Shown here: in pieces, positions 122 through 63,885 of the stretch
Layout of the letters: each line of letters starts with the position of its first letter
Position numbering within the stretch: position 1 is the stretch's first letter
Source: Catellatospora vulcania
GTDB lineage: Bacteria > Actinomycetota > Actinomycetes > Mycobacteriales > Micromonosporaceae
DNA length: 64,000 nucleotides
Direction of reading: 5' to 3'
NCBI RefSeq assembly: GCF_009720385.1
Contig: NZ_WARX01000001.1
Location: 248,001-312,000 of the forward strand
Notes under the pieces: generated by a model
The model's input: only the letters and a program-made list of their open reading frames with translations
Database searches by the model: none
Told to the model about the DNA's origin: nothing
Position numbers and translations under genes: made by a program

Positions 122-176
122 AGTTAAGAAGGTGCCCTTCCTCTACGAAAACCGATGGGAAGGTGCCCTTCCTTCG
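122..176. repeat. Dispersed repeat family A, copy 1 (direct pair)
   Basis: Two identical 15-mers GAAGGTGCCCTTCCT lie at 128-142 and 159-173 in the same orientation, preceded by TTAA. Each monomer is itself a small hairpin (GAAGG, three-base centre TGC, CCTTC). The element sits between the convergent partial gene at 1-117 and the minus-strand prim-pol gene. Other copies are at 6046-6096, 11392-11443 and 33704-33745. Confidence 0.8.
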
Positions 177-447
177 CCTGTCAGCGGGTGGGGCGGTGGG
201 TGCTGGTGGGGCGGGATCCCGAAGGGCGGGAACCGTGCGGGCGGGTTCCGGCGGGTCGGGTGCCTGCCCAGCGCGCTGCCGACGATCGTATGACCCCAAA
301 TTGGGACTCGACGTGCGCCAGGTGCCGTTCTACGTTGTCAGGTGCCATGTCGGACCTCCTCGATACCTCACCTAACGACCGCGCTGCCGGGCGGTCGCTG
401 CCCGGTGCACGTCACCAGGCGGGTTCGAGGGGTGGAAGGGCTGCTGC

Positions 448-1221
448 TCAGACGGCTCGGCGCAGGGTCGGGGTGGGTTTGAGGGCGGCGGGCCGGGGCA
501 GGGCCGGTGGGGCGAGCCGGCGGCGCGCGGTGACGGGCAGGTCCAGGAACGAGGCGTCGAGCGCCACCAGTGCCTGCACCAGGGCGGCCTGGAACTCGTC
601 CGGGTCGGGCAGTTGCCAGCCGATGCTCTGCGGCGACACCTTCCAGCGGATCGGCCCGTCGGGCAGCACCGTGGGCGGGGCGGGGATCCACGAGCCGAGC
701 GAGTGGCGCACCACGTCGACCCGGTGGTCCAGTTCCGGGGCGAGCGTGCCGCCCGAGCGCATCAGGAACATCCAGCTGCCCGTGGCGGTGACCGCGACGG
801 GTCCGCGCACGTGGCCCGCGGAGGTCGCGCGGCCGGGGCCGGTCGGCGGCCCGCACACGGCCCGTGAGCCGAGCAGGGCGGGCACCTCCAGCACGTCGAA
901 GGCGTGGCCGGTGGGCAGCAGCAGTGCGTGCGGGCGCTCGCTCCACCACTCGTCGAACTGCTCGGAGCTGGTGCTCGTCCGGGTCTCCCAGTCGTCGTAC
1001 AGCGGGTGGCTGCTGGTGGCGAAGCAGTTCACGCGGTCGCAGGCCATGCGTCGGCCGTTGAAGTATCCGCCGGGCATCACCGACCAGCCGTGGTCGGCGA
1101 AACGCTGCGCCGCCAGGCGCAACCGCCGCCGTAACAGGCCTCTGCCGAACGGCGCCTGTGGCCACCGCATGAGTCCGACCCCCTCTTCCGGGTTAAGGGC
1201 GTCGATCCTAGAGATCGACAT
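448..1221 (-). CDS. Short bifunctional primase/polymerase (prim-pol) N-terminal domain protein
   Basis: The product has 257 residues. Features typical of the actinobacterial prim-pol-like family are GWSVMPGGYF (45-54), CDRVNCF (61-67, resembling the Cys-rich turn of the fold) and PTGHAFDVLEVP (103-114), which aligns with the active-site strand. Canonical enzymes carry D-x-D or D-x-E there; here Asp109 is followed by V-L-E, so catalysis may be altered. No helicase or primase C-terminal domain follows, unlike replicative phage or plasmid enzymes of 600 residues or more. The ATG at 1221 is used; Met18 is an alternative. It is divergent from the XRE regulator, and there are no phage genes nearby, so this is probably a stand-alone chromosomal protein of unknown role. 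Confidence 0.8.
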   Translation of the reverse strand: MSISRIDALNPEEGVGLMRWPQAPFGRGLLRRRLRLAAQRFADHGWSVMPGGYFNGRRMACDRVNCFATSSHPLYDDWETRTSTSSEQFDEWWSERPHALLLPTGHAFDVLEVPALLGSRAVCGPPTGPGRATSAGHVRGPVAVTATGSWMFLMRSGGTLAPELDHRVDVVRHSLGSWIPAPPTVLPDGPIRWKVSPQSIGWQLPDPDEFQAALVQALVALDASFLDLPVTARRRLAPPALPRPAALKPTPTLRRAV

Positions 1222-1345
1222 CCACGAAAGCCGTCACCGACGCGCCGAGTCGTCGTTACATCGACAACAGTCCAGAGCAACCGTCTGAATGCATTGTCCA
1301 ACTGCAACTTGCATCTGAAGATACGAGTGTCGGACCGGATGTGGG

Positions 1346-1375
1346 CGCACAGACTGTGCGACTCGGTCAGACCGA
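1346..1375. promoter_or_regulatory. Two adjacent perfect palindromes, candidate operators
   Basis: CGCACAG-A-CTGTGCG occupies 1346-1360 and TCGGTC-A-GACCGA occupies 1363-1375. Both are perfect and share a single A centre; the centres are 16 bp apart. They lie 24-53 bp before the start of the XRE regulator and within the divergent promoter region shared with the prim-pol gene. Autoregulatory binding by the XRE protein is inferred, not shown. Confidence 0.55.
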
Positions 1376-1398
1376 CCCGATGAGGGGAGGGCTGGAGG

Positions 1399-2625
1399 AT
1401 GGACGAGCTGCCGATAGGCCGCCGGGTGTCGTACTGGCGCAACCGCCGCAAGATGTCGCAGCAGGTCTTCGCCGACCGCCTGGGCAAGTCGAAGAGCTGG
1501 GTCGACAAGGTGGAGCGCGGCGTGCGCCGGCTCGACAAGTTCTCGGTCGTGTACGAGATCGCCGACGTGCTCCAGCTCGACGTCCAGCTGCTGCTGGGCA
1601 AGGACCCGGAGCGCCGCCCCGACAGCATGAACTGCATCGACCAGATCGAGGTCGCCGAGATCCGCTCCGCGCTGGAGCGCTACGACCAGATCAGCGCGTT
1701 CTTCTACGCGGCCCCCGAGCCGCCGCCGATCGCGGAGATGCGCAAGGCGGCCCTGCACGCCTGGCAGACCTGGGAGCACGGCCGCTACGGCGTGCTGGCC
1801 CGCGCGCTGCCCAAGCTGCTGCGCGACGCCCAGGCCGCCGACACGGCGTACGCCCACTCCGACGACTCCCGTGAGGCAGCCCACCTGCTCGGCCAGGTGT
1901 ATCAGCTGGCCTCGTCGGTGCTGCGCAAGCTCGGCGAGCTGGACCTGAGCTGGCTGGCCGCGGACCGTTCCATCGCGGTGTCGCAGCGGGCGGGCGACCA
2001 GCTGCTCGCCGGGGTGGCCACCACCCGGGTGGCGAACGCGCTGCGGGCCCTGGGCCGGCACCGGGCGGCGCTGGAGGTCAACGTCAACATCGCCAACCGG
2101 CTCTGCCCGACCCCGGGCGAGACGGCCGACGACCAGCTGTCGGTGTACGGCTTCCTGCTGCTGCAGGGCGCGATGGCGGCCTCCTGCATCGGCGACAGCG
2201 CGACCATGCGCGACCTGCTGTCCGCGGCCGCGGACGCGGCGGCCGGTCTGGGCGGCGACAAGAACCACTACTGGACCAGCTTCGGCCCGACCAACGTGCT
2301 GGTGCACCGGGCCGCCGCCGCGGTCGAGCTGGGCGAGGGCGGCCTGGCCATCTCCATCCACGACGGGCTGGACCCGGCCGCGTTCAACGCGCTGCTGCCG
2401 GAGCGCCGGGCCCACCACTACCTCGACATGGCGCGCGGCTTCGCGCAGGTCGGCGAGGTCGAGCGGGCGGGGGAGATGCTGCTGGAGGGCGACCTGCTGG
2501 CGCCCGCCGAGATCCGCTGCCGGCCGATCGCGCACGAGGTGCTCAGCGACGTGCTGCGGCGCACCCGCGGCACGCCCACCGCCGCGCTGGCGGAGCTGGC
2601 CGAGCAGATGGGGGTGGGCGTGTGA
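1399..2625 (+). CDS. XRE-family regulator with C-terminal TPR-like helical repeats
   Basis: The 408-residue product starts with a lambda-repressor-type helix-turn-helix domain (about residues 6-66; recognition region SQQVFADRLGKSKSWVDKVE). A long Ala/Leu-rich helical region follows to the end, typical of the TPR-like sensor of actinobacterial XRE/TPR regulators that bind peptides or small ligands. A GGGGAGGG Shine-Dalgarno sequence lies about 9 bp before the ATG. The stop overlaps the next gene's GTG by 4 bp (GTGA), so the regulator and flavoprotein are translationally coupled. Two palindromes upstream suggest autoregulation. The ligand and regulon are unknown. Confidence 0.9.
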   Translation: MDELPIGRRVSYWRNRRKMSQQVFADRLGKSKSWVDKVERGVRRLDKFSVVYEIADVLQLDVQLLLGKDPERRPDSMNCIDQIEVAEIRSALERYDQISAFFYAAPEPPPIAEMRKAALHAWQTWEHGRYGVLARALPKLLRDAQAADTAYAHSDDSREAAHLLGQVYQLASSVLRKLGELDLSWLAADRSIAVSQRAGDQLLAGVATTRVANALRALGRHRAALEVNVNIANRLCPTPGETADDQLSVYGFLLLQGAMAASCIGDSATMRDLLSAAADAAAGLGGDKNHYWTSFGPTNVLVHRAAAAVELGEGGLAISIHDGLDPAAFNALLPERRAHHYLDMARGFAQVGEVERAGEMLLEGDLLAPAEIRCRPIAHEVLSDVLRRTRGTPTAALAELAEQMGVGV

Positions 2626-3164
2626 CGGTGCTCTACGTCATCGCCTGCGGATCACCGGTGACCCGGGACGTCGGGCTGCTGGTGGGGCTCGCGCAGGAGC
2701 GCGGGTACGACGTGTGCGTCGTGGTCACGCCGGACGGGCGCAAGTTCGTCGACGTGCCGGCGCTCGCGGCGCAGACCGGGCACCCGGTGCGCAGCACGTA
2801 CAAGAATCCCGGCGATCCCGACGTGCTCCCGTCGCCGGACGCGCTGATCGTGGCGCCGGCGACGGTGAACACCGTGAACAAGTGGGGCGCCGGCATCGCG
2901 GACACGCTGGCGCTGGGGCTGATCGTGGAGAGCCAGGGCAAGGGGCTGCCGATCGTCGCGATGCCGTTCACGAACGCGGCGATGGCCCGGCACCCGGCGT
3001 TCCAGGAGAACATCGTCCGGCTGCGCGGCTGGGGCATCACCGTGTTGTACGGCGACGACGTGCTGAAACTGCCCGCTCCCGGCGAGGGGGACGCGTACCG
3101 TCACGAGTTCGGCTGGACGCTGGCCCTGGACGCGGTGGAGAAGCTCTGCCCGCCGGGAGCCTGA
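2622..3164 (+). CDS. Flavoprotein of the HFCD (FMN-dependent decarboxylase-like) family
   Basis: The 180-residue single-domain product has an N-terminal Rossmann strand (VLYVIACGSPVTRD). PATVNTVNKW (79-88) matches the PASANT-type FMN-binding motif of homo-oligomeric flavin Cys decarboxylases (EpiD, Dfp/CoaC). A P-x-x-N-x-x-M stretch (PFTNAAM, near 119) corresponds to the substrate clamp PAMNxxM. It lacks the CoaB ligase domain and is not the housekeeping Dfp. Coupling to the XRE/TPR regulator suggests a regulated oxidative decarboxylase or flavin-binding partner. The substrate is unknown. Confidence 0.85.
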   Translation: MTVLYVIACGSPVTRDVGLLVGLAQERGYDVCVVVTPDGRKFVDVPALAAQTGHPVRSTYKNPGDPDVLPSPDALIVAPATVNTVNKWGAGIADTLALGLIVESQGKGLPIVAMPFTNAAMARHPAFQENIVRLRGWGITVLYGDDVLKLPAPGEGDAYRHEFGWTLALDAVEKLCPPGA

Positions 3165-3213
3165 GCCGCCCGCGCCACACGGCAGGCCGCCCGCTGCGCA
3201 GTAGTCTGTCCGG

Positions 3214-4032: not shown

Positions 4033-4078
4033 ACGTGGCCTTTGACAACTGGACAACCGCGAAAGAAGGAGTGCCGAC

Positions 4079-6039: not shown

Positions 6040-6045
6040 CAGGCG

Positions 6046-6096
6046 TTAAGAAGGGCACCTTCTACAACGCATAGCGATGTGAAGGTGCCCTTCCTT
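6046..6096. repeat. Dispersed repeat family A, copy 2 (inverted pair); likely bidirectional terminator
   Basis: GAAGGGCACCTTC (6050-6062) and GAAGGTGCCCTTC (6081-6093) are exact reverse complements separated by 18 bases, with TTAA just before the left arm. The 13-bp stem lies seven bases after the RNase H fusion stop and just past the stop of the convergent RNB gene, a placement fitting bidirectional termination. Confidence 0.8.
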
Positions 6097-6100
6097 CGTG

Positions 6101-7633: not shown

Positions 7634-8794
7634 CTAACGCACGGCCTTGCGGGTCATCTTCTTCATGGCCGTCTTGCGCATGGTCGTCTTGCGGGCCGGG
7701 GCGGTCTTCGCCATGGCCTTGCGGGCCGGCGCGCTCTTGCGGGCGGTGGTCGCCTTCTTCATCGGCGTCACCTTCTTGGCGGCCATGGCCTTCTTCGCCG
7801 TGGTGCGGCCGGTGGCGGTACGGCGTACCGCCGCGGTGATCTTCTTGGCCCCGGTCGCCTTGCGGGTGGCGGTGGTCTTCTTCACCCCGATGGTGGTCTT
7901 CTTGGCGGTGGCCGACTTCCGGGCGGTCGCCTTGCGCGCGGGTGCGGTCTTCTTCGCGGCCGTCGTCTTGCGGACCGTGGTCGTCTTGCGGGCCGTCGCC
8001 TTGCGGGCGGGCGAGGACTTCTTGGCGACCGTGGTCTTCTTCACGGCGGTGGACTTTCTGGCAGGCGACGCCTTCTTGGCGGTCGTCTTCCGGGCTGCCG
8101 CGGCCTTCTTCATCGGCGTCGACTTCCTGGCAGCCGTGGTCTTCTTCGCGGCAGCCGTCTTCTTCACCGCAGCAGTGATCGTCCGGGTGCCGGTGCTGCG
8201 GGCCGCCGCCGTGGTCTTCTTGGCGGTCGCCTTCTTCGCCGTGGTCTTACGCGCGGTCGTGGTCTTCTTCGCGGCGGTGGTCTTCCTGGCCGCGGTCGTC
8301 TTCTTGACCGCGGTGGCCTTCCTGGCCGGGGACGTCTTCTTTGCGGCGGTGGTCTTCTTCGCCGTCGTCGTCTTCCGGGCCACCGCGGCCTTCTTCATCG
8401 GCGTCGTCTTCTTGGCGGCAGTGGTCTTCTTGGCGGTCACGGCCTTCTTGGCCGCCGTCTTCTTCACCGCGGCGGTCACCTTCTTGACGCCGGTGCTGCG
8501 GGCCGCCGCCGTGGTCTTGCGCGCGGCGGTGGTCTTCTTCGCGGCCGTGGTCTTCTTGACCGCGGTGGTCCTCTTCGCGGTGGCCTTCTTGGCCGGGGAC
8601 GTCTTCTTGGCGGTGGTCTTCTTCGCCGTCGTCGTCTTCCGCGCTGTCGTGGTCTTCTTGGCGGGCGAGGTCTTCCTGGCAGGCGCGGCCTTCTTCGCCG
8701 CGGCCGGCCGGCTCGGCGCCTTCTTGGCTACCGCCTTCTTGGCAGCGGCCTTCTTCGCTGGGGCCTTCTTCGCTGCGGCCTTGGCTACGGCCAT
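7634..8794 (-). CDS. Stand-alone histone H1-like Lys/Ala/Thr-rich repeat protein
   Basis: The 386-residue product is built almost wholly of Lys, Ala, Thr and Arg in AKK, TAKK, SPARK and PAKK units, like the tails of eukaryotic H1 and actinobacterial HupB, but without any HU domain. A higher-order repeat is visible: AAARSTG recurs at 97-103 and 197-203 (exactly 100 residues), TAAVKKT or TAAVRRT at 107, 207 and 320, and TPMKKA at 131, 226 and 343. An AGGAGG-type Shine-Dalgarno precedes the ATG. Inferred role: nucleoid compaction or DNA bridging, perhaps regulated by Lys acetylation or phosphorylation. The repeats make length variation between strains likely. Confidence 0.85.
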   Translation of the reverse strand: MAVAKAAAKKAPAKKAAAKKAVAKKAPSRPAAAKKAAPARKTSPAKKTTTARKTTTAKKTTAKKTSPAKKATAKRTTAVKKTTAAKKTTAARKTTAAARSTGVKKVTAAVKKTAAKKAVTAKKTTAAKKTTPMKKAAVARKTTTAKKTTAAKKTSPARKATAVKKTTAARKTTAAKKTTTARKTTAKKATAKKTTAAARSTGTRTITAAVKKTAAAKKTTAARKSTPMKKAAAARKTTAKKASPARKSTAVKKTTVAKKSSPARKATARKTTTVRKTTAAKKTAPARKATARKSATAKKTTIGVKKTTATRKATGAKKITAAVRRTATGRTTAKKAMAAKKVTPMKKATTARKSAPARKAMAKTAPARKTTMRKTAMKKMTRKAVR

Positions 8795-10661: not shown

Positions 10662-11420
10662 ATGAGACTCGACGTGCCCGCCTCGAAGCTGCTACGCGTG
10701 CTGCTGTGGAGCGTGGCCGCGATCCACCTGCTGAGCCTCGGCTTCACCGTCGTCTACCACGGTTTCGGGCTGTACGACCTGATTCCGTACTGGGGCCGGA
10801 TCGTCAAGTTCTTCTACGTCGACAAGGAGCAGAACCTGCCCACCTGGTTCTCCAGCGGGCTGCTGTTCCTCGCGGCGCTGCTGCTGTGGCAGCTCGGCGG
10901 CGCGGACCGGGCGTCCGGCGGGCGTTTCCACCGGCACTGGCGGGTGCTCGCAGTCGTCTTCACCGCGCTGTCGCTGGACGAGTTCTCGCAGTTCCACGAA
11001 CTCGGGGCGCAGGCCGACGTGCTCGACGCGGGCGGGGCGTCGTACCTGTCCTGGCTGGTGCTCGCCGCCCCGCTGGTGCTCGTGCTGGGCCTGTCGTACC
11101 TGCGCTTCCTGCTCGCCCTGCCGCCGCGCGTGCGCTGGCTCATGCTCGGCGCGGCCGCGCTGTTCCTCGGTGGCGCGGCCGGGATCGAAGTGCTCGGCGC
11201 GTACTCCGGCCGCGAGAACATCGGCTTCACTCCCGGCTGGGCCTCCCTGCGCTATGTGCTCGCGGCCTCGGCCGAGGAACTGTGCGAGATGCTCGGCGTG
11301 GTGCTCTTCGTGTACGCCGCCGCCCAGCACCTCCAGCACCTGCCCACCCCGACCCCCACGCCACTCCCGCGCCCGTCCCCCCGCCCCCAGTCAAGGAAGG
11401 GCACCTTCACATCGCCATAG
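10662..11420 (+). CDS. Multipass membrane protein with SLDE and EE motifs, unknown function
   Basis: The ATG at 10662 gives 252 residues; an upstream in-frame ATG at 10581 abuts the divergent gene and is unlikely. About six hydrophobic segments are visible (near 10-31, 54-71, 82-97, 116-137, 145-160, 185-205). Conserved-looking acidic motifs occur inside or next to helices: SLDEFSQFHE and ASAEELCEM. These suggest a membrane metal site or enzyme, but I cannot name the family. The last residues (RKGTFTSP) are encoded by the left arm and spacer of a family A repeat, and the TAG stop lies between its two arms. Confidence 0.75.
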   Translation: MRLDVPASKLLRVLLWSVAAIHLLSLGFTVVYHGFGLYDLIPYWGRIVKFFYVDKEQNLPTWFSSGLLFLAALLLWQLGGADRASGGRFHRHWRVLAVVFTALSLDEFSQFHELGAQADVLDAGGASYLSWLVLAAPLVLVLGLSYLRFLLALPPRVRWLMLGAAALFLGGAAGIEVLGAYSGRENIGFTPGWASLRYVLAASAEELCEMLGVVLFVYAAAQHLQHLPTPTPTPLPRPSPRPQSRKGTFTSP

Positions 11421-11443
11421 GTTGTGGAAGGGCACCTTCTTAA
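11392..11443. repeat. Dispersed repeat family A, copy 3 (direct pair) containing a stop codon
   Basis: GAAGGGCACCTTC occurs twice in the same orientation (11396-11408 and 11427-11439), with TTAA directly after the second copy. The plus-strand membrane protein gene reads into the element and stops in its spacer (TAG 11418-11420). It lies between convergent genes. Confidence 0.8.
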
Positions 11444-11544
11444 CCCCTTGCGTGCGGCGGGATAGCCAGGATGGCTCATGCGGTGATGAACGCGGCATGG
11501 TCCCGCACCGTGGAGCGCTGCGTCGCCTGGGACGCCACCTTGGC

Positions 11545-12065: not shown

Positions 12066-12490
12066 ACGGACGAGTCGGCCTGTACGCCGGATTCTGTGCC
12101 GCGCTCGCGCGCGGCGGCGGCCATCCATCTAGGCCTGCCGTCGCCGGCAGGCTCGAGCAACCTACCCGCGGACATCGGGCGGGCCACCCTCGAACGTCCG
12201 CGCGGCCACCCGCCCGCCGAAGCGGATCGAGCGGCCTTTCTTGGTCTTGCTCCGGGTGGGGTTTACCTAGCCACCCCGGTCACCCGGGGTGCTGGTGAGC
12301 TCTTACCTCACCGTTTCACCCTTACCCGCTGCCCCGGGGGGCGGCGGGCGGTCTGTTCTCTGTGGCACTGTCCCGCGGGTCGCCCCGGGTTGCCGTTAAC
12401 AACCACCCTGCCCTGTGGAGTCCGGACGTTCCTCGGCACCGCCGGGCCGGAGCCCGTGATGACGCGACCGCCCGGCCGACTCGTCCGTCG
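12066..12490 (-). ncRNA. rnpB: RNase P RNA (bacterial type A)
   Basis: Read on the minus strand, the 5' segment CGAGTCGGCC (ending at plus position 12483) pairs perfectly with the 3' GGCCGACTCG (12071-12080), forming helix P1. Hallmark conserved stretches follow in order: GAGGAACGTCCGGACTCC, ACAGGGCAGGGTGG, GGTGAAACGGTGAGGTAAGAG, GACAGAA-like core and, near the 3' end, ACAGAATCCGGCGTACAGG. The RNA matures 5' leaders of tRNAs. A TATCAT -10-like box at 12499-12504 (minus strand) would place the transcript start close to 12490. The ends are approximate to a few bases. Confidence 0.95.
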
Positions 12491-12574: not shown

Positions 12575-12639
12575 AAGATCGCTGTTTGGTGTCGAAAGCT
12601 GTGGCCGAACCACACAATCTGACACCAAACAGCGATCTT
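12575..12639. repeat. Dispersed palindrome family C, copy 1
   Basis: A perfect 19-bp inverted repeat: AAGATCGCTGTTTGGTGTC (12575-12593) and its complement at 12621-12639, with a 27-base spacer. It lies between the rnpB promoter and the TauE/SafE gene. A related element with GATCGCTGTTT arms occurs at 22352-22412. Confidence 0.8.
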
Positions 12640-14221: not shown

Positions 14222-14284
14222 CGCAACTCTTAAAGAGTCGCGCCTTCACGACCGCCTGCAGGCCGCGACTCTTTAAGAGTTGCG
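14222..14284. repeat. Dispersed palindrome family B, copy 1
   Basis: A perfect 21-bp inverted repeat (14222-14242 with 14264-14284) whose arms contain CGCAACTCTTAAAGAGT. Each arm is itself near-palindromic around TTAA. It lies between convergent npdG and panB. Other copies are at 46120-46183, 50551-50614 and 63651-63716. Confidence 0.85.
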
Positions 14285-14319
14285 GCCTGCGGCGGGCGTG
14301 GGCGCGCCCTTCCGGCGCT

Positions 14320-26887: not shown

Positions 26888-26948
26888 CCGTGCGAGGGGG
26901 CTGCCGGCACTGCCGTCAAGCCGCGTCAACGCCGTCGGCGAGCGCAGA

Positions 26949-26990
26949 GACGCGGAACGCCGGCCACGACCGTGGCCGGCGTTCCGCGTC
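26949..26990. terminator. 42-nt perfect palindrome, bidirectional terminator
   Basis: A 20-bp perfect stem (26949-26968 with 26971-26990; core AACGCCGGCCACG) has a two-base AC loop, so in RNA it would form a slightly shorter helix with a larger loop. It lies between convergent genes, 12 bp past the DUF3352 stop. There are no T tracts. Confidence 0.75.
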
Positions 26991-27002
26991 TGAGCCAGTC
27001 CG

Positions 27003-31835: not shown

Positions 31836-32462
31836 GTGAACAAGACTGAGCTGATCGACGCGATCGCCGCTCACCCGACCGTGGTCGACAAGAAGACCGC
31901 CGCGGCCGTGCTGGAGGCCACGCTCACCGAGATCCAGAACGCGGTCACCAAGGGCGACAAGGTTTCGCTGACCGGCTTCGGTGTCTTCGAGAAGCGGGCC
32001 CGGGCCGCTCGCATGGCGCGCAACCCGCGCACCGGCGAGGCGGTCAAGGTGAAGAAGACGTCGGTGCCGGCCTTCCGGCCCGGCGCGGGCTTCAAGGACA
32101 CGGTGGCGGTCGGCAAGGTCGCCGCCCCGGCGAAGAAGGCGACGAAGTCCGCCGCCAAGAAGACCGCCGGCGCCAGCACCCGCCCGGCCGCGAGCAAGGC
32201 CACCGCCGCCTCGAAGACGGCCCCGGCCAAGAAGACCGCGACCAAGAGCACCGCGACCAAGAGCACCGCCAAGGCCACCACTGCCAAGGCCACCGCGGCG
32301 AAGGCGACCGCGGTCAAGGCCACCGCCAAGAAGACCGCGGCGGCGAAGACGGCTCCGGCCAAGAAGACCGTGACCGCGAAGGCGACGCCTGCGGCGAAGA
32401 AGACGACCGCCAAGGCGACCACGGCCAAGAAGGCCCCCGCCAAGAAGGCCGCCAAACGCTGA
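31836..32462 (+). CDS. hupB: HU-family nucleoid protein with histone H1-like Lys-rich tail
   Basis: GTG 31836 after GGGAGG gives 208 residues. Residues 1-92 are a complete HU domain ([40 protein letters not shown]; arm [20 protein letters not shown]). Residues 93-208 are Lys/Ala/Thr repeats ([19 protein letters not shown]) like M. tuberculosis HupB and Streptomyces HupS. It binds and compacts DNA. The location downstream of leuCD is conserved in mycobacteria. It resembles in composition the stand-alone H1-like gene at 7634. Confidence 0.97.
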
Positions 32463-33675: not shown

Positions 33676-33703
33676 CCTAGCGGATCACCGGGTGAGGTTT
33701 GAT

Positions 33704-33745
33704 AAGGGCGCCTTCTTATTCGCGCAGCGACAAGAAGGCGCCTTT
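33704..33745. repeat. Dispersed repeat family A, copy 4 (inverted pair) supplying a stop codon
   Basis: AAGGGCGCCTTCTT (33704-33717) and AAGAAGGCGCCTTT (33732-33745) form a 14-bp stem with one G-U. The minus-strand CYTH-CHAD gene reads through the right arm and takes its TAA stop (33716-33718) at the edge of the left arm. It is between convergent doxX and the CHAD gene. Confidence 0.8.
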
Positions 33746-35239
33746 CCTTGCGGTCTTGCGCCAGCGGCGGGGGTAGGTGGTGCGGGCGTGGGTGGCGAGG
33801 GTGCGTTCGTGGGTGGCGAGGCGCCCGAGGGTGGCGGCGAGGTGGGGGTGGGACTCCGCCAGCTCCAGCCAGGTCGCGGCGGCCAAGGCGGCGTCGGTGT
33901 GCTCGCCGAGGGCGTCCTGGAGGCCGGCCAGGGACTTGGCCAGGCGGCCGATCCGGCGGTCGCCGGCGGTCGCGGCGGCTTCGGCGGCGTACCGGGCGCG
34001 CTTGACGTGGATGCGCACCCGGTGCCAGTCCACATCGGGCGCGGAACGTTTCAGGGCGGCCGCCCCGGGCACGTCCTTGGTGCCCTGGACCAGGCGGCGC
34101 CAGGGACGGGCGACCAGGCCGGGCAGCGCCTGCGCGGCGGGGGCTGCGGCCGCGGGCGACAGCGGGATGCGGCGGGTGGCGGCGGTGAGCCGCTCCAGCA
34201 GGGCCAGGTAGCGGCGGGTGCGCATCGCGGCCAGCAGGGCCGTGCGCGCCTGCTCGCGCCGGGCGGCCAGGACCGTGTCGAGGGCGGCCAGGTCGCCGCC
34301 GTCGGTCGGGCCCGCCGGGTCGGCGGCGGCCGTGGCACGCAGCCGGTCGCGCAGCACCTCGGCGTCGCGCGCTGCGCCCAGCAGGCCGCCGAGCCAGGCC
34401 AGCTCCGCCCGCAGCGGCCGGGCCCAGCGCTGATCGACCAGTGGCTTGCACGTGCGCAGGTCCGAGCGCAGCCGGCGGACGCCGACCCGCATCTGGTGCA
34501 CGGCGGTGTCCCCGTCCGGCAACGGCTCGTCCAGGCGTACCAGGGGATCGTGCGCGACGATGCGCGCCACCGCGCCGCGCACCGCGGCGATGACCACGTC
34601 GGCGGCCCGCGCGGTCGGCGGCAGGGTCGCGGCCGGGGGCAGCAGATCCGGGGGGTACGCCGCCGCGGCCCCCAGCGCCCGCACGTGCTTGGGCGTGAAC
34701 CCGCCCGCCCGGGCCCCCGCCGCCAGCAGCTGCTCCTCCACAGCGGACAGCAGCTCTGGCGGCCCGCCCAGCCGCTCGACCTCGATCTCGCGGAACGTGT
34801 GCCGCACCGCCGTGCCGGACAGCACCTCGACGGTGTCGTCGGCGACCTCGGCCAGCCGGGAACCCGCGGCGTCGCACAGGTCCACCCGCTGCCGCCGGGT
34901 GCGCAGCACCGCGACCGGGGTCAGCGGCGACCCCCTGGTCAGCGCCGCGACCAGCCAGGTCAGCGCCTCCGGTGGCGAGTTCGGGTCGGCCCCCGGCAGC
35001 GAGATCTCCTGCCGCACCCCGGGCGCCGCGGTGGGCAGCTTGACCGTCCACGGCAGCGGATCGCCGACCCGGTGCCGCAGCGACGCCCCGGCCCGCGCCA
35101 GCCGCAGGCTCGCCGTGTCGAAGTAGGTCGCGGTCAGGGTCACGGCAGCCCGAGCCACCGGGCGCACCTGCTCGACGGTCAGCTCGGGCAGCGCGAACGA
35201 CGGCGGGACGTCGTACTTGCGCTCCTCCTCCAAGGTCAC
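33716..35239 (-). CDS. CYTH-CHAD domain protein (polyphosphate-associated)
   Basis: GTG 35239 gives 507 residues, overlapping ppk by GTGA. The N-terminal CYTH triphosphate-tunnel domain has EEERKYDVP (ExExK) and a mid-domain [15 protein letters not shown]; later [21 protein letters not shown]. The C-terminal CHAD domain (about 215-500) has [16 protein letters not shown] and [15 protein letters not shown], His/Arg helices known to bind polyphosphate. Adjacent ppk strengthens the link. The last residues ([10 protein letters not shown]) come from the family A repeat. Confidence 0.93.
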
Positions 35240-41886: not shown

Positions 41887-41964
41887 TGATCGTCGGACTT
41901 GCCTGGCAATCGTGCGTATCTTGAGGCGGGATACGACCGGTTGCCAGGCAAGTCGGTGTATCTA
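41887..41964. repeat. Dispersed palindrome family D, copy 2, supplying a stop codon
   Basis: The left arm GACTTGCCTGGCAA (41896-41909) pairs perfectly with TTGCCAGGCAAGTC (41941-41954). The spacer contains GCGTATCTTG, also present in copy 1 (17122-17261), so the family has conserved internal sequence. The last bases (CTA 41962-41964) are the TAG stop of the minus-strand membrane gene. It is between convergent genes. Confidence 0.8.
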
Positions 41965-46119: not shown

Positions 46120-46183
46120 CGCAACTCTTAAACACTCGCGCCTTCACTCCGCTCGTGAAGGCGCAGGTCTTTAAGAGTTGCGC
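46120..46183. repeat. Dispersed palindrome family B, copy 2
   Basis: CGCAACTCTTAAA on the left and TTTAAGAGTTGCG (46170-46182) on the right are complementary, with an inner stem GCGCCTTCA/TGAAGGCGC. The element is between the convergent GNAT gene and rpmB. Confidence 0.8.
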
Positions 46184-46230
46184 CAGGTGGGGGTGGGGGC
46201 GGGGCGGGGTGGTGGGGGTGCAGGGCACGG

Positions 46231-46263
46231 CAAAGGCCGCCGAGCGGAGCTCGGCGGCCTTTT
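46231..46263. terminator. Bidirectional terminator between GNAT gene and rpmB
   Basis: AAAGGCCGCCGAGC (46232-46245), loop GGA, perfect complement (46249-46262). A/T runs flank both sides, so it can act for either strand; it lies 12 bp past the rpmB stop. Confidence 0.88.
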
Positions 46264-50550: not shown

Positions 50551-50614
50551 CCGCAACTCTTAAAGAGTCGCGGCATCCCGGCGCTACTGAAGCTGCAACT
50601 CCTTAAGAGTTGCG
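50551..50614. repeat. Dispersed palindrome family B, copy 3
   Basis: CCGCAACTCTTAAAGAGT begins at 50551; GCAACTCCTTAAGAGTTGCG ends at 50614, each arm being self-complementary. It lies between convergent recG and the surface-protein gene, just before a strong terminator. Confidence 0.8.
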
Positions 50615-50619
50615 ACAGG

Positions 50620-50653
50620 AAAAGGGCGGGTCCGGAACGGACCCGCCCTTTTT
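50620..50653. terminator. Strong bidirectional terminator
   Basis: AAAAGGGCGGGTCCG (50620-50634), loop GAA, perfect complement (50638-50652), with A-runs on the left and T-runs on the right, giving U tracts on both strands. It separates recG from the LPKTG gene. Confidence 0.93.
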
Positions 50654-57303: not shown

Positions 57304-57305
57304 GG

Positions 57306-59138: not shown

Positions 59139-59208
59139 ACGATTCCCGCGTCAGCGGGACCGTGGTCGACCCCTTGATTGCGGGTCGCCACAGTGCACCA
59201 GTCCTTAT

Positions 59209-59241
59209 GCGCGCCTCCACTCCTGTGGTGGCGCGCTTTTT
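59209..59241 (+). terminator. Rho-independent terminator of the small coiled-coil gene
   Basis: GCGCGCCTCCAC (59209-59220), loop TCCT, GTGGTGGCGCGC (59225-59236) with one mismatch, followed by TTTTT. It separates the small gene from smc. Confidence 0.85.
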
Positions 59242-59446: not shown

Positions 59447-62400
59447 GTGCACCTCAAGAGCCTGACGGTGAAGGGCTTCAAGTCCTTCGCCTCCGCGACC
59501 ACGCTTCGGCTGGAGCCGGGCATCACCTGCGTGGTGGGCCCCAACGGCTCCGGCAAGTCCAACGTGGTGGACGCGATCTCCTGGGTGCTCGGCGAGCAGG
59601 GCGCGAAGGCGCTGCGCGGCGGCAAGATGGAGGACGTGATCTTCGCCGGCACGTCCGGCCGGCAGCCGCTGGGGCGCGCCGAGGTCACCCTCACCATCGA
59701 CAACGCCGACGGCGCGCTGCCGATCGACTACACCGAGGTCTCGATCACCCGCCGGATGTTCCGCTCCGGCGAGAGCGAGTACGAGATCAACGGTGACGCC
59801 TGCCGCCTGATGGACATCCAGGAGCTGCTGTCCGACTCCGGCATCGGCCGGGAGATGCACGTCATCGTCGGCCAGGGCCAGCTCGACGCGGTGCTGCACG
59901 CCAAGCCCGAGGACCGGCGCGCGTTCATCGAGGAGGCCGCGGGCGTCCTCAAGCACCGCAAGCGCAAGGAGAAGGCGCTGCGCAAGCTGGACGCGATGCA
60001 GGCCAACCTGAACCGCGTCACCGACCTCACCGACGAGCTGCGCCGCCAGCTCAAGCCGCTGGGCCGGCAGGCCGAGGTGGCCCGCCGCGCCGCGACCATC
60101 CAGTCCGACCTGCGCGACGCCCGGCTGCGGCTGCTCGCCGACGACCTGTACACGCTGCGCACGACCCTGGACAAGGAGGTCGCCGACGAGGCGGCCCTGC
60201 GCACCAAGCGCGAGCTGGTCGAGGAGGAGTACGAGCAGGTCCAGCTGCGGCTGTCGGCGCTGGAGACGGCGCACGCCGCCGACGCGCCCGCGCTGACCCA
60301 GGCCCAGGACGTCTGGTACCAGCTCTCCGCGCTGCAGGAGCGCTTCCGCTCCACCGCCCAGCTGGCCGCCGAGCGGCACCGCCACCTGGCCGCGCCGACC
60401 GAGGAGGAGCGGTCCGGCCGCGACCCGGAGCGGCTGGAAGCCGAGGCCGAGGCGGTCCGCGAGCAGGAGGAGGCGCTGCGCGAGGCGCTCACCGACGACC
60501 AGGTGCGCCTGGCCGAGGCCGTCGAACGCCGCCAGGAGCTGGAGCGCCAGCTCGCCGGGGCGGAGCGGGCGCTGGTCGTCGCCGTGAAGGCGATCGCGGA
60601 CCGGCGCGAGGGCATGGCCAAGCTGTCCGGCCAGGTCAACGCCGCGCGTACGCGTACCGCGACAGCCTCCGAGGAGATCGAGCGCCTGTCCACGGCGTAC
60701 GGCGACGCCGCGATGCGCGCCGAGGCAGCCCAGGAGCAGGTCGACGCGGTCGCCGAGCAGACCTCCGACGCCGACCGCGACAACGCCGACCTGGACACCG
60801 CCCACGCCCTCGCGGTCGCCGCGTACGACGAGGCCAACGCGGCGGTCAAGCGGGCGTCCGACGCCGAACGCGCCGCCGAGAAGGAGGCCACCGGCTGGAA
60901 GGCCCGCGAGGAGGCGCTCGCGCTCGGCCTCAACCGCAAGGACGGGGCCGGCGCGCTACTGGCCCGCGGCGGCGAGGTGCCCGGCCTGCTGGGCAGCGTC
61001 GCGTCGCTGCTGGCCGTCGAGCCCGGCTGCGAGGCGGCGCTGGCCGCGGCGCTGGGCGCGCTGGCCGACGCGGTCGCGGTGTCCGGCGTCGACGAGGCGG
61101 CCGAGGCGATGCGGCTGCTCAAGATCCAGGACGCGGGCCGGGCGGCGCTGCTGATCGGCACGCCCACCCCGCAGTCCCGCCCCGACGTGGCCCTGCCGCC
61201 CGGCGCTCGCTGGGTGCTGGACGTGGTGCGCTGCGCCGACACCATCCGCCCCGCGATCACGGTCGCGCTGCGTGACGTGGTCCTGGTCACCGACCTGCGG
61301 GCCGCGTCGGCGCTGGTCGCGGCACACCCGGCGCTGCGCGCGGTGACCGCCGAGGGCGACCTGGTCGGCGCGTTCTCCGGAGCCGGCGGCTCGGCGAAGG
61401 CCCCCAGCTACATCGAGGTCCAGGCGGCCGTCGACGAGGCCCGCGCCAAACGCGCCGCGGCCGAGGAGTCGATCGCCGTGCTGCGCGAGGAGATCGCCGA
61501 GGCCCGCGAAGTCGCGACCGAACGCAAGCGCGACGTGGACTCCGCCGCCGCGGCCAAGCGCGCCGCCGAGGGCGAGCGCAACGCCGCCGCCCGTCGCCTG
61601 GCCGAGGTCGGCGCCGCGGCCCGCTCGGCCCAGGCCGAGGCGCAGCGCCTGGCCGCCTCCCGGGACAAGGCCGTCGCCGCCCGCGAGCAGGATCTGGAGC
61701 ACCTGACCGAGCTCGAAGAGCGGCTGATGGCCGCCGAGGCGGTGCCGGTCGACGAGGACCCGTCCACCGCCGAGCGCGACCAGCTCGCGGCGCTGGTGCC
61801 GCAGGCCCGCCAGAACGAGGTCGAGGTCCGCCTCGCGGTGCGCACCGCCGAGGAGCGCGTCTCGCAGATCGCGGGCCGCGCCGACTCGCTGCTGCGCCAG
61901 GCCGCCGCCGAGCGTGCCGCCCGGGAGCGGGCCGCCGCCCGCCGGGCCGCCCGCGAGCGCGGGGCGGCCGTCGCCAAGGCCGTCGAATCCGGCACCCGGG
62001 AGGTGCTGACCAGGCTGAACGTGGCGCTGGAGGAGGCCGCCGAGCGCCGGGACACGATCGCCGAGGCGCGTACGGCCCGCGAGGCCGAACTGGCCCAGGT
62101 GCGCAACGGAGCCAAGCGGCTCGGCGACGACCTGAACCGGCTCACCTCCGAGGTGCACCGCGACGAGGTCGCCCGCGCCGAGCAGCGCATGCGCATCGAG
62201 CAGCTGGAGACCCGCGCCGCCGAGGAGTTCTCGCTGGACGTGGAGACCCTGCTCGGCGAGTACGGCCCCGACGTGCCGGTGCCGGTGGTCCTGCTCGGTT
62301 CCACCGACTTCGCCGACCCGGAGCCCTACGACCGGGCCATCCAGGAGAAGCGCGCCGCCAAGGCCGAGCGCGACCTGGCCCTGCTCGGCAAGGTCAACCC

Positions 62401-62986
62401 GCTGGCCCTGGAGGAGTTCGCGGCGCTGGAGGAGCGCTACAAGTTCCTCTCCGACCAGCTCGAAGACCTCAAGGCGACGCGCAAGGACCTGCTCACCGTG
62501 GTCAAGGACGTCGACGACCGCATCCTGGAGGTGTTCGCGACCGCGTTCGAGGACACCGCCCGCGAGTTCCAGGTGGTCTTCCCGATCCTGTTCCCGGGTG
62601 GCGAGGGCCGCCTGGTGCTGACCGACCCGGACAACATGCTCACCACCGGCGTCGAGGTCGAGGCACGCCCGCCGGGCAAGAAGATCAAGCGGCTGTCGCT
62701 GCTGTCGGGTGGCGAGCGCTCGCTGACCGCGGTGGCGATGCTGTGCGCGATCTTCCGCGCCCGCCCCAGCCCCTTCTACATCATGGACGAGGTGGAGGCG
62801 GCGCTCGACGACGTCAACCTCGGCCGACTGATCACCCTGTTCCAGGAGCTGCGCTCGCGCAGCCAGCTGATCATCATCACGCACCAGAAGCGCACCATGG
62901 AGGTCGCCGACGCCCTGTACGGCGTGACCATGCGCAACGGTGTCACCGAGGTGATCAGCCAGCGGCTGAAGGGCGAGTCCGAATGA
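59447..62986 (+). CDS. smc: Chromosome segregation protein SMC
   Basis: GTG 59447 gives 1179 residues. Walker A GPNGSGKSNVVDAISW (31-46), two long coiled coils (about 165-500 and 660-1000) flanking the hinge (about 510-650, LGSVASLLAVEPGCEAAL), C-terminal signature LSGGERSLTAVAML and Walker B FYIMDEVEAALDDVN. It works with ScpA/ScpB (not in the window) in chromosome compaction. Stop overlaps the following HAD gene by 4 bp, an unusual coupling. Confidence 0.97.
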   Translation: MHLKSLTVKGFKSFASATTLRLEPGITCVVGPNGSGKSNVVDAISWVLGEQGAKALRGGKMEDVIFAGTSGRQPLGRAEVTLTIDNADGALPIDYTEVSITRRMFRSGESEYEINGDACRLMDIQELLSDSGIGREMHVIVGQGQLDAVLHAKPEDRRAFIEEAAGVLKHRKRKEKALRKLDAMQANLNRVTDLTDELRRQLKPLGRQAEVARRAATIQSDLRDARLRLLADDLYTLRTTLDKEVADEAALRTKRELVEEEYEQVQLRLSALETAHAADAPALTQAQDVWYQLSALQERFRSTAQLAAERHRHLAAPTEEERSGRDPERLEAEAEAVREQEEALREALTDDQVRLAEAVERRQELERQLAGAERALVVAVKAIADRREGMAKLSGQVNAARTRTATASEEIERLSTAYGDAAMRAEAAQEQVDAVAEQTSDADRDNADLDTAHALAVAAYDEANAAVKRASDAERAAEKEATGWKAREEALALGLNRKDGAGALLARGGEVPGLLGSVASLLAVEPGCEAALAAALGALADAVAVSGVDEAAEAMRLLKIQDAGRAALLIGTPTPQSRPDVALPPGARWVLDVVRCADTIRPAITVALRDVVLVTDLRAASALVAAHPALRAVTAEGDLVGAFSGAGGSAKAPSYIEVQAAVDEARAKRAAAEESIAVLREEIAEAREVATERKRDVDSAAAAKRAAEGERNAAARRLAEVGAAARSAQAEAQRLAASRDKAVAAREQDLEHLTELEERLMAAEAVPVDEDPSTAERDQLAALVPQARQNEVEVRLAVRTAEERVSQIAGRADSLLRQAAAERAARERAAARRAARERGAAVAKAVESGTREVLTRLNVALEEAAERRDTIAEARTAREAELAQVRNGAKRLGDDLNRLTSEVHRDEVARAEQRMRIEQLETRAAEEFSLDVETLLGEYGPDVPVPVVLLGSTDFADPEPYDRAIQEKRAAKAERDLALLGKVNPLALEEFAALEERYKFLSDQLEDLKATRKDLLTVVKDVDDRILEVFATAFEDTAREFQVVFPILFPGGEGRLVLTDPDNMLTTGVEVEARPPGKKIKRLSLLSGGERSLTAVAMLCAIFRARPSPFYIMDEVEAALDDVNLGRLITLFQELRSRSQLIIITHQKRTMEVADALYGVTMRNGVTEVISQRLKGESE

Positions 62987-63582
62987 GGCGCAGGCCGGCC
63001 GAGGCCCTGCTGATCGACTTCGACGGGGTGCTGCGCCACTTCGACTCCTCGGTGTACGGCGACTTCGAGTCCCGGCACGGCGTCGCGCCCGCGAAGCTGC
63101 TGGAGTCCGGGCTGGAGTGGGCCCGCCAGATTCCGGCGATCACCGGTCACTGGACCCGGCAGCAGTGGCTGGACGAGATCGCCGCGCACACCGGCGCGTC
63201 CGCCGCAGCGCTGACCGAGTGGGACGCCTACCGGGGGTACGTCGACGAGACAGTGCTGGCGTTCGTACGCGAGGTGCGCGCCTCCGGCCGCAAGGTGGGC
63301 CTGGGCACCAACGCCACCGACGACCTGCACGACGACCTGGCGCTGTTCGGCCTCAAGGACGACTTCGACGCGATCGTCTCCTCGGCGGAGCTGGGCGTGC
63401 ACAAGCCGTCGAAGGAGTTCTTCAAGGCCGCCTGCCTGGCCCTGGATACCCCCGCCGACCGCTGCCTGTTCATCGACGACGTCGACCGCAACATCCGCGG
63501 CGCCCGCGTCGCGGGCCTGTCCGCCCTCCGCTGGACCAGCCCCGCCGACCTCACCTACGCCCGCGCCGCCCTCGGCCTCTGA
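62983..63582 (+). CDS. HAD-superfamily hydrolase (subfamily IA)
   Basis: ATG 62983 overlaps the smc stop (ATGA); 199 residues. ALLIDFDGVLRHFD is motif I (DxD nucleophile and acid), VGLGTNATDD motif II, HKPSKEFFKAACLALD motif III Lys, and CLFIDDVDRNIRGARVAGL motif IV. The helical cap between motifs I and II suits small phosphorylated substrates. The substrate is unknown; it may be a metabolite phosphatase. Confidence 0.92.
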   Translation: MRRRPAEALLIDFDGVLRHFDSSVYGDFESRHGVAPAKLLESGLEWARQIPAITGHWTRQQWLDEIAAHTGASAAALTEWDAYRGYVDETVLAFVREVRASGRKVGLGTNATDDLHDDLALFGLKDDFDAIVSSAELGVHKPSKEFFKAACLALDTPADRCLFIDDVDRNIRGARVAGLSALRWTSPADLTYARAALGL

Positions 63583-63885
63583 CCCTCCCGCCGCCCTCCC
63601 GCCGCCCGCCGGCCCGCCCTCCCGCCGCCCGCCGGCGGCCCCCCCGTCGGCCGCAACTCTTAAAGACTTGCGGCCTTTCGGCTGCCCGTTGACCGCAACT
63701 TTTTAAGAGTTGCGGCGAGGGCGGGCGGGGCGCGTGGCGCGGGGCGCGCGGCGCGGGGCGCGCGGGGCGGGGCGCGCGGGGCGGGGCGGGGTGTCCGGCG
63801 GGTGGGCGGGGGTGTGAAAGTTTCTCTCGGGATGTGGAATCGGTAAGGGGCGGTGACAACCGGATCTCCGGGCTGCGCGTGACTA
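63583..63885. other. GC-rich intergenic region with low-complexity GGGGCGCG run
   Basis: After the HAD stop, CCCGCCGCCC-type repeats (63590-63640) precede family B copy 4. From 63718 to about 63790 the plus strand is almost only G and C, as GGGGCGCG units. No gene is visible. It is between convergent genes. Confidence 0.7.
63651..63716. repeat. Dispersed palindrome family B, copy 4
   Basis: CCGCAACTCTTAAAGACTTGC starts the left arm (63651) and GTTGCGGC ends the right arm (63716); arms pair with a few mismatches and each contains TTAA. It lies between the convergent HAD gene and the partial minus-strand gene. Confidence 0.8.

What the first reader, a model, noticed from the sequence alone, without database searches (positions are those of the whole stretch)
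122..63716. Two palindromic repeat families (A and B) occur only between convergent genes, 8 of 8 copies
Family A (GAAGG-N3-CCTTC pairs at 122, 6046, 11392, 33704) and family B (GCAACTCTTAAAGAGT pairs at 14222, 46120, 50551, 63651) each lie in a gap where both flanking genes point inward. I count about 14 convergent gaps in the window, so most carry one. This argues for a shared role (bidirectional termination, transcript end protection, or RNA duplex control between overlapping 3' ends) or for selective retention there.
Basis: partly seen in the sequence, partly recalled or inferred. Interest (0 to 1): 0.85.

Follow-up and report, generated by a model that had tools for sequence, protein, structure and literature searches.

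The report
Interchangeable hairpin repeats at gene ends
Two DNA repeats thought to sit only between head-on genes turn out to be two of several scattered hairpin families placed just after the ends of genes in a soil bacterium, where they appear to take the place of ordinary transcript-ending hairpins; the general kind is known, but these families look new and seem to swap with one another between species.

Summary
The two repeat families are real: 204 A pairs and 98 B pairs in an 8.83-Mb Catellatospora genome, with nearly constant monomer spacing (31 and 42 bp) and no reversed-control hits. "Only between convergent genes, 8 of 8" is too strong. In the window it is 7 of 8 (63651 is tandem; 11392 counts only through the RNase P RNA gene). 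In 1.2 Mb, A is 25 convergent, 20 tandem, 3 divergent, 1 genic; B is 19, 11, 0, 0. Of 31 tandem copies, 28 lie nearer the upstream gene's 3' end. Family-hairpin density is similar in convergent gaps (2.68/kb) and tandem 3' zones (2.37/kb), and almost nil before starts. So the rule is "3' end", not "convergence".

A and B are two of about nine dispersed hairpin families. Gaps with a family hairpin less often hold an ordinary unique hairpin. At orthologous convergent gaps the family often differs between species while a hairpin is present in both. Orthologous stems change in compensated pairs. Most repeat families lack U-tracts.

Best reading: mobile or once-mobile palindromes serving as 3'-end-forming/protecting hairpins. 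Neutral retention in safe sites is the main rival. No RNA data were available.

The parts
123..176 (.). Family A copy (core AAGGNNNCCTT-N20-AAGGNNNCCTT at 129-170), convergent gap; left monomer flipped (direct order)
6045..6098 (.). Family A copy (core 6051-6092) filling the 61-nt gap between an RNase H/phosphatase gene (+) and an RNB exonuclease-domain gene (-); RNA fold z about -7 on either strand
11391..11444 (.). Family A copy (core 11397-11438); overlaps the end of ORF 10698-11420 (+, no Pfam match); the RNase P RNA gene (minus) lies to the right, 628 nt away, with no certain gene between
33698..33751 (.). Family A copy (core 33704-33745, 1 mismatch); spans the 3' end of the CYTH/CHAD gene 33716-35239 (-); convergent with a DoxX-like gene (+)
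14222..14286 (.). Family B copy (61-nt core 14223-14283) between an F420-oxidoreductase gene (+) and panB (-), convergent; just downstream of panB, C. sichuanensis and C. bangladeshensis hold A
46120..46184 (.). Family B copy (core 46121-46181) between a GNAT gene (+) and rpmB (-), convergent
50552..50616 (.). Family B copy (core 50553-50613) between a RecG-like helicase gene (+) and an LPXTG-protein gene (-), convergent; no A/B in the orthologous gap of G071, G129 and G118
63652..63716 (.). Family B copy (core 63653-63713); TANDEM: HAD hydrolase (+) then ABC transporter (+) starting at 63959
12575..12639. Family E hairpin (AAGATCGCTGTTT...AAACAGCGATCTT) between the 5' ends of the RNase P RNA gene (-) and a TauE gene (+): divergent, a counterexample (itself labels it tandem, because the gene caller does not know the RNA gene)
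41896..41954 (.). Family H hairpin (GACTTGCCTGGCAATCG...), convergent gap without A/B (clustered with E by the script, set apart by eye)
26948..26991 (.). Unique 21-bp hairpin, convergent gap without A/B
46232..46262 (.). Unique compact hairpin (AAAGGCCGCCGAG...CTCGGCGGCCTTT) in the same gap as B 46120, next to the rpmB 3' end
50620..50652 (.). Compact terminator-like hairpin (AAAAGGGCGGGTCCG...CGGACCCGCCCTTTT) in the same gap as B 50552; a related hairpin is alignable in G071 and G129, and a GC-rich stretch in G118
12067..12483 (-). RNase P RNA (bacterial class A), partner of A 11392

Best explanation
A and B are dispersed palindromic repeats that act as hairpins at the 3' ends of genes. Shown: they lie mostly just after stop codons, in convergent and tandem gaps alike; they belong to a pool of about nine such families; gaps that hold a family hairpin less often hold an ordinary unique one; the family often differs between species at the same gap; stem changes are compensated more often than chance. 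Inferred: the transcribed hairpin marks and protects the RNA 3' end, either by stalling RNA polymerase as a U-poor terminator, or more likely by stopping 3'-to-5' exonuclease trimming after Rho-dependent release further downstream. B's C-rich, G-poor leader on both strands fits Rho. The near-symmetric stem works on both strands, so one copy can serve two convergent genes. Copies spread by an unknown route and were kept, or replaced older hairpins, where they landed behind genes.
For: Position: 28 of 31 tandem A/B copies lie nearer the upstream 3' end (in the relatives 5 of 6, 7 of 9 and 1 of 2). In gaps of 150-500 nt, family hairpins per kb are 2.68 convergent, 2.37 tandem 3' zone, 1.01 tandem middle, 0.04 tandem 5' zone, 0.19 divergent. 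General rule: of 507 inverted repeats (score 13 or more) in 2.4 Mb, 235 are convergent, 235 tandem, 13 divergent, 24 inside genes. Same slot: unique compact hairpins occur in 6 of 102 tandem gaps (120-500 nt) with a family hairpin against 92 of 343 without (p=1.3e-6); convergent 120-500 nt, 19 of 89 against 23 of 54 (p=0.008); convergent 40-119 nt, 1 of 49 against 52 of 93; tandem 40-119 nt, 0 of 9 against 52 of 351 (p=0.37, no power). Swapping: convergent gaps with a hairpin in both genomes are same family / different family / family-to-unique / unique in both = 15/1/6/5 (G129), 5/6/7/4 (G071), 3/6/2/2 (G118); tandem gaps 11/1/2/11, 8/1/4/5, 3/2/0/9. Just behind panB there is B or A according to species. 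Structure: B stem 85.4% paired, covariation score 0.153 against at most 0.072 for slid controls and 0 of 500 shuffles. Orthologous hairpins: 69 stem pairs changed on both sides, 51 still Watson-Crick, 16.6 expected if independent; unique hairpins alone 34 (27 still Watson-Crick) against 7.6. RNA level: on the transcribed strand in tandem gaps G-U exceeds A-C 84:44 (p=0.0005 pooled). B leader C 0.59-0.61, G 0.23-0.24 against C 0.35-0.39, G 0.33-0.34 in 3' flanks without A/B.
Against: No transcript 3'-end data. For repeat families alone the G-U excess is weak (51:33, p=0.063) and absent in convergent gaps (29:37), where none is expected; for B and A alone it is 24:19 and 4:2. Two of the five B covariation measures are no better than shuffles (pairs changed on both sides 44 of 500, further pair types 147 of 500). 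Family A shows no covariation between copies: it scores below its own shuffles, and 15 of 60 copies have an unpaired centre. U-tract terminators are not rarer but more frequent in convergent B gaps (5 of 52 flanks) than in gaps without A/B (13 of 476), though absent with A (0 of 70). The B gap at 50552 also holds a compact terminator-like hairpin, alignable in two relatives lacking B there, and the B gap at 46120 holds one too, so B is not needed for ending those transcripts. Swaps are few in tandem gaps. Hairpin presence in both genomes does not exceed chance for convergent gaps of G118 (13 against 13.6). One E copy lies upstream of the RNase P RNA gene. B's C-rich/G-rich skew is the same on the downstream side in tandem gaps, where no second 3' end is present. 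Exclusion is partly lack of room, most of all in short gaps.
Confidence: 0.56

Rival explanations
1. Neutral retention: A, B and the other families are mobile palindromes that insert widely and survive only where they break neither a gene nor a promoter, that is behind genes. They need no function.
For: Copy numbers vary widely between close genomes (B 0 to 112 in 11 same-genus genomes; A 0 to 158 among genomes of genus g4). Presence/absence differs at orthologous gaps. Density is similar in convergent and tandem 3' zones. Two window B gaps already hold another hairpin, and U-tract terminators are not depleted in convergent B gaps (5 of 52). An 88-nt family I insertion sits behind a stop codon where G071 has none.
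Against: Family and unique hairpins avoid each other even in gaps of 120-500 nt. Orthologous stems keep pairing through changes on both sides. Unique, non-repeated hairpins have much the same placement and a clear G-U excess (33:11).
Confidence: 0.29
2. DNA-level role: the palindromic monomers are protein sites (for example nucleoid protein or gyrase sites that absorb supercoils between converging polymerases). The constant 31- and 42-bp spacings are close to 3 and 4 helical turns (10.5 bp per turn, recalled) and put both monomers on one face.
For: Spacing is nearly invariant: of 28 B arm pairs 26 at 42 bp; A 47 pairs at 31 bp, every other spacing at most 2. Triple-monomer arrays keep the same period. 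In A the monomer stays AAGGNNNCCTT even when flipped. No clear G-U excess for A/B alone.
Against: In B the inner half of the monomer loses self-symmetry while left-right pairing is kept (columns 19-51 and 21-49). The similar density behind tandem genes is not predicted by supercoil collision between convergent genes.
Confidence: 0.1
3. Classical bidirectional intrinsic terminators (A-tract, GC stem, U-tract on both strands).
For: Some unique hairpins here fit: TTT within 10 nt downstream in 19 of 126 sense against 3 of 126 antisense tandem cases; AAAAGGGCGGGTCCG...CCCTTTT at window 50620.
Against: Repeat families mostly do not: B has TTT in 0 of 54 convergent and 0 of 12 tandem sense flanks and G-rich downstream bases; C in 2 of 42, and the eight G118 copies shown mostly carry T-runs before and A-runs after the stem, the wrong way round. 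For A, TTT is in 8 of 60 convergent flanks and in 1 of 18 sense against 9 of 18 antisense tandem flanks.
Confidence: 0.04
4. RNA duplex or antisense control specific to overlapping convergent 3' ends, as the first reader also proposed.
For: Enrichment in convergent gaps over base-pair expectation.
Against: The enrichment nearly disappears when compared with tandem 3' zones (2.68 against 2.37 per kb).
Confidence: 0.01

Closest known systems
Intergenic stem-loop structures (SLS) biased to convergent gaps and 3' ends (Petrillo et al. 2006, PMC1590033; passages and section 9 read) and SLS repeat families (PMC2267715; passages read)
   Same: Same placement rule: convergent enriched, divergent poor, and near the 3' end in co-directional gaps; some SLS are repeat families.
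   Different: The part of their genome table that I saw lists no Micromonosporaceae. Exclusion of unique hairpins and family swapping at orthologous gaps were not mentioned in the passages read (the word 'orthologous' does not occur in PMC1590033).
REP / GTAG- and CGTC-tagged palindromic repeats (PMC3733652; passages read)
   Same: High-copy short palindromes, often close together in opposite orientation, between co-directional and convergent genes, plausibly transcribed.
   Different: No GTAG or CGTC tag at the A or B ends; no Y1 transposase found in this genome; constant paired spacing of 31 or 42 bp; about nine families in one genome.
Uptake-sequence pairs acting as terminators in Haemophilus (PMC5217627; passages read)
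   Same: A repeated word in inverted pairs forming 3'-end hairpins.
   Different: About 1300 uptake words in that genome, many single (the last point recalled); B arms here are mostly paired (48 of 52 in own C1).
Long, U-poor terminator hairpins of Streptomyces (PMC12207403; passages read)
   Same: High-GC actinobacteria with long stable hairpins, few downstream U, RNA ends close to the stem, covariation; authors consider Rho and trimming.
   Different: Dispersed repeat families are not mentioned in the passages read.
IS insertion into REPs (PMC1525189; search listing with start of abstract only)
   Same: An IS30-like element sits in the loop of a family C hairpin in G118 ('IS30-like' is recalled from the look of the protein, no family search run).
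   Different: Single case, other repeat family.

Membership tests
Intergenic 3'-end stem-loop repeat families (SLS) | Repeated sequence able to fold into a stable stem-loop | tested here: met
   A and B: 204 and 98 pairs; RNA fold z -2.3 to -7.6 for the 8 window copies on both strands, weakest for the two A copies with flipped monomers
Intergenic 3'-end stem-loop repeat families (SLS) | Concentration at 3' ends, avoidance of divergent gaps | tested here: met
REP (GTAG type) | Terminal tetranucleotide GTAG | tested here: not met
   A consensus ends GTTAAG/CCTTCG, B TGCCGCAAC/GTTGCGGCA
REP (GTAG type) | RAYT (Y1 transposase) in the genome | tested here: not met
   PF01797: 0 matches in own genome and 0 in G051, G118, G016, G133, which carry 60-273 A pairs; 6 of 11 genomes have some
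CGTC-REP | Terminal CGTC tag | tested here: not met
   Not at A or B ends; family C has GACG/CGTC 3 nt inside its ends, not analysed further
Canonical intrinsic (Rho-independent) terminator | GC stem followed by U-tract | tested here: not met
   TTT within 10 nt in B 0 of 54, C 2 of 42, A 8 of 60 convergent flanks
Canonical intrinsic (Rho-independent) terminator | RNA 3' end at the hairpin | not testable with these tools
   needs Term-seq
Rho-dependent terminator with stem-loop end | C-rich, G-poor leader before the end | tested here: inconclusive
   B leader C 0.6, G 0.23; A leader not different from other 3' flanks (C 0.39-0.40, G 0.32-0.33), mildly C-rich (0.44-0.49) at 20-60 nt upstream of the element
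MITE | Terminal inverted repeats of an autonomous element plus target-site duplication | tested here: inconclusive
   Inverted arm pairs 300-4000 bp apart were listed in part (at most 6 per row; the A pattern did not pair A's own hairpins); 11 of them, 0.5-1.3 kb, were looked at and none is clearly an element ending in these arms; one 88-nt empty site without clear duplication

The most novel reading that the evidence does not exclude
In Catellatospora, gene 3' ends are served by a pool of about nine unrelated, dispersing hairpin cassettes that are functionally interchangeable. Cassettes spread without a REP transposase, displace native terminator hairpins and replace one another at the same gap within a genus, so that the function stays and the sequence turns over.
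Probability: 0.36. Interest if true: 0.68.

Novelty: new member of a known kind. Interest (0 to 1): 0.5.

Why it matters
It turns "two repeats between convergent genes" into a testable statement about how a high-GC actinobacterium ends transcripts where U-tract terminators are rarely recognisable (13 of 476 convergent 3' flanks without A/B, 27 of 825 tandem, 1 of 708 divergent controls). Different hairpin families at orthologous gaps are a natural experiment: if 3'-end position and RNA level stay constant across a swap, stem-loop structure rather than sequence defines the transcript end. It also suggests that selfish palindromes can be recruited as terminators.

Tried and rejected
Convergence-specific role: rejected by density in tandem 3' zones. 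REP/RAYT: rejected for this genome. Canonical U-tract terminators: rejected for most repeat families, kept for some unique hairpins. Families as ends of an IS: of the inverted arm pairs listed, 11 of 0.5-1.3 kb were looked at; they flank ordinary-looking genes (by eye, no family search), and in one case an IS30-like gene lies inside the loop of a C hairpin. Longer pairs were not inspected. Rfam: no match at A/B (gathering threshold, window only). Orientation of A's TTAA side in tandem gaps: 20 against 8, 6 undecided, p=0.036, not built upon. Search for clean empty sites: 10 candidate alignments, only one (family I, 208878) covers a repeat hairpin with both flanks well aligned. G-U test on A/B alone: no signal. 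Covariation of A: none.

Limits: genes were called with a simple codon-usage caller written here (1057 genes in 1.2 Mb). It misses some genes and all RNA genes, so single assignments can be wrong. Families were built by single linkage on 10-mers; cluster 0 pools E with at least one H copy; G and H were set apart by eye. 'Unique' means not in clusters 0-7 and may include a few G, H or small-cluster copies. Rows dropped: the B alignment used 38 of 42 distinct copies (the four rows of triple arrays left out), the A alignment 60 of 77 (six overlapping or neighbouring rows and all 11 G129 rows left out; G118 copies had no reference). Orthologous comparisons require a hairpin in both genomes and 72-99% identity, which favours kept pairing; arm-to-arm template switching could also make paired changes.


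Full report
WHAT IS THERE. The window is contig 1, 248001-312000, of an 8.83-Mb, 36-contig genome. The panB protein is 98-100% identical to Catellatospora paridis, methionotrophica and sichuanensis and 89% to C. bangladeshensis, so this is most likely a Catellatospora, family Micromonosporaceae (lineage). Family A is AAGGNNNCCTT-N20-AAGGNNNCCTT (42 nt; 204 places, up to 1 mismatch, reversed control 0). Family B is GCAACTCTTNAA-N37-TTNAAGAGTTGC (61 nt; 98 places, up to 3 mismatches, control 0). Spacing between monomers is nearly fixed at 31 and 42 bp (47 A pairs at 31, others at most 2 each; 26 of 28 B pairs at 42); a few arrays of three monomers keep the period. Among 300 family genomes, A (up to 1 mismatch) occurs in 102, in 15 of 44 genera, but with very uneven numbers, and single hits may be chance; B occurs in 10, in 3 of 44 genera, nearly all of it in this genus.

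THE CLAIM OF 8 OF 8. I took 1.2 Mb of the genome, called genes with a simple codon-usage caller and classified copies. In the window seven of eight are convergent, one of them only through the RNase P RNA gene; 63651 is tandem. In 1.2 Mb, A is 25 convergent, 20 tandem, 3 divergent, 1 inside a gene (49 merged places); B is 19, 11, 0, 0 (30 places). Convergent gaps offer 15.6% of possible intergenic positions, so the excess is real (p about 5e-9 each). In tandem gaps 28 of 31 copies are nearer the 3' end of the upstream gene. In smaller samples of three relatives: G071 A 8/6/1/1 (convergent, tandem, divergent, inside), G129 A 4/6/1/0 and B 7/3/1/0, G118 A 1/2/0/0; tandem copies nearer the 3' end 5 of 6, 7 of 9, 1 of 2.

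THE WIDER PATTERN. A search for the best inverted repeat in every gap of 40-400 nt (score 12 or more; shuffled 0) found long hairpins in 19 of 22 convergent A gaps and 18 of 19 convergent B gaps, but also in 66 of 97 convergent gaps without A or B, 94 of 352 tandem and 3 of 173 divergent gaps without A/B. A full scan of own 1.2 Mb and 3 x 0.4 Mb of relatives found 507 inverted repeats (score 13 or more): 235 convergent, 235 tandem, 13 divergent, 24 inside genes. Besides A and B they include C (ATAGACGTTGGCCTATC), D (GTTGATCATGAACTTATGG), E (GATCGCTGTTT), F (TGCAGTTTCGGGGAAACTGC), I (TGTTTTTGTGGACGC), and by eye G (CCACAACTTCTGGGTTGT) and H (GACTTGCCTGGCAATCG); 236 are singletons or pairs.

3' END, NOT CONVERGENCE. 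In gaps of 150-500 nt, family hairpins per kb are 2.68 in convergent gaps, 2.37 within 75 nt behind a stop in tandem gaps, 1.01 in the tandem middle, 0.04 within 75 nt before a start, 0.19 in divergent gaps. Unique hairpins give 1.49, 1.76, 0.21, 0.27 and 0.06. A convergent gap simply has two 3' ends.

SAME FUNCTIONAL SLOT. Gaps with a family hairpin less often hold a separate unique compact hairpin: tandem 120-500 nt, 6 of 102 against 92 of 343 without (p=1.3e-6); convergent 120-500 nt, 19 of 89 against 23 of 54 (p=0.008); convergent 40-119 nt, 1 of 49 against 52 of 93, where lack of room contributes; tandem 40-119 nt, 0 of 9 against 52 of 351 (p=0.37). Against this, the stricter scan for U-tract terminators found them in 5 of 52 convergent B flanks, 0 of 70 A flanks and 13 of 476 flanks without A/B. 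At orthologous gaps the family often differs. Just downstream of panB there is B here and in C. paridis, A in C. sichuanensis and C. bangladeshensis, and an AAGGGCCCCTT-type A (1 mismatch) in Micromonospora chalcea and M. endolithica; 5 of the 80 loci held any A or B, and in all five one copy lies within 40 nt of the panB match (the gene beyond was not checked there). In the syntenic stretches the panB gap holds A in G071, B in G129 and neither in G118. Among convergent gaps with a hairpin in both genomes, same / different family / family-unique / unique-unique are 15/1/6/5 for G129, 5/6/7/4 for G071 and 3/6/2/2 for G118 (median protein identity 96, 89 and 83%). In tandem gaps the figures are 11/1/2/11, 8/1/4/5 and 3/2/0/9, so swaps are fewer there. 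Hairpin presence in both convergent gaps exceeds chance for G129 (27 against 20.5) and G071 (22 against 17.1) but not for G118 (13 against 13.6).

STRUCTURE. B folds as one stem of about 27-31 bp with a loop of 7 nt or more; 38 copies pair in 85.4% of cells, with a covariation score of 0.153 against 0.031-0.072 for slid partners and 0 of 500 shuffles; two cruder measures (pairs changed on both sides, further pair types) do not stand out from shuffles. A is different: it is conserved in sequence, has a direction (GTTAAG on one side, CCTTCG on the other), 15 of 60 copies have an unpaired centre because one monomer is flipped, and it shows no covariation. Orthologous hairpins (58 comparisons) show 69 stem pairs changed on both sides, 51 still Watson-Crick, 16.6 expected if independent; for unique hairpins, where exchange with another copy is a less likely cause, 34 (27 Watson-Crick) against 7.6. 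On the transcribed strand of tandem hairpins G-U exceeds A-C 33:11 for unique and 51:33 for family hairpins, pooled p=0.0005, which points to RNA; in convergent family hairpins there is no bias (29:37).

HOW IT MAY WORK. U-tracts are mostly missing after the repeat hairpins: B is followed by G-rich sequence and preceded by C-rich, G-poor sequence (C about 0.6, G about 0.22), symmetrically on both strands, also in tandem gaps. C-rich, G-poor RNA as a Rho loading region is recalled, not tested. In Streptomyces, Term-seq found long U-poor hairpins with RNA ends close to the stem, and the authors weigh Rho and exonuclease trimming (PMC12207403, passages). I therefore favour hairpins that define the RNA 3' end by blocking trimming after Rho-dependent release, or by U-poor termination. 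This step is inferred, not shown.

AGAINST. Two of four B copies in the window share the gap with a compact hairpin, one of them also alignable in relatives lacking B there. One E copy lies between the 5' ends of the RNase P RNA gene and a TauE gene. Copy numbers fluctuate widely between species. Neutral survival of mobile palindromes behind genes explains the placement as well; it does not easily explain the avoidance of unique hairpins and the paired changes.

NOVELTY. That stem-loops prefer convergent gaps and 3' ends is reported for the 40 genomes of PMC1590033 (passages and section 9 read; one genome had no convergent gaps), and REPs show the same bias (PMC3733652, passages). The families here had no Rfam match (window only) and eight answered literature searches gave no paper describing them, judged from listings; most subscription journals are not held. 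Filing: new members of a known kind, with different families at orthologous gaps and avoidance of unique hairpins as the less expected part.

Noticed in passing
window 12575-12639: Family E hairpin in the divergent space between the RNase P RNA gene (-) and a TauE gene (+), an exception to the 3'-end rule.
   Followed up: partly
L278:5981-7182 (G118): An IS30-like transposase gene (label recalled, no family search) inserted in the loop of a family C hairpin between convergent genes.
   Followed up: partly
window 7634-8794: Gene with many short direct repeats of 15-18 nt, seemingly coding a repetitive lysine/alanine-rich protein (by eye), perhaps histone-like; a similar repeat stretch at 32122-32453.
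   Followed up: no
G000 contigs C1 beyond 1.15 Mb and C2 1-354 kb: No exact A pair is listed there, and no B pair with exact arms is listed on C2, suggesting that the repeats avoid part of the chromosome; copies with mismatches were not listed in full.
   Followed up: no
window 63723-63792: G/C-only 14-nt tandem repeat right after B 63652.
   Followed up: no
genus g18 genomes: A-type elements with AAGGGNCCCTT monomers and a recurrent inner part CGCTTTCCGCATAG, a lineage-specific version of family A.
   Followed up: no
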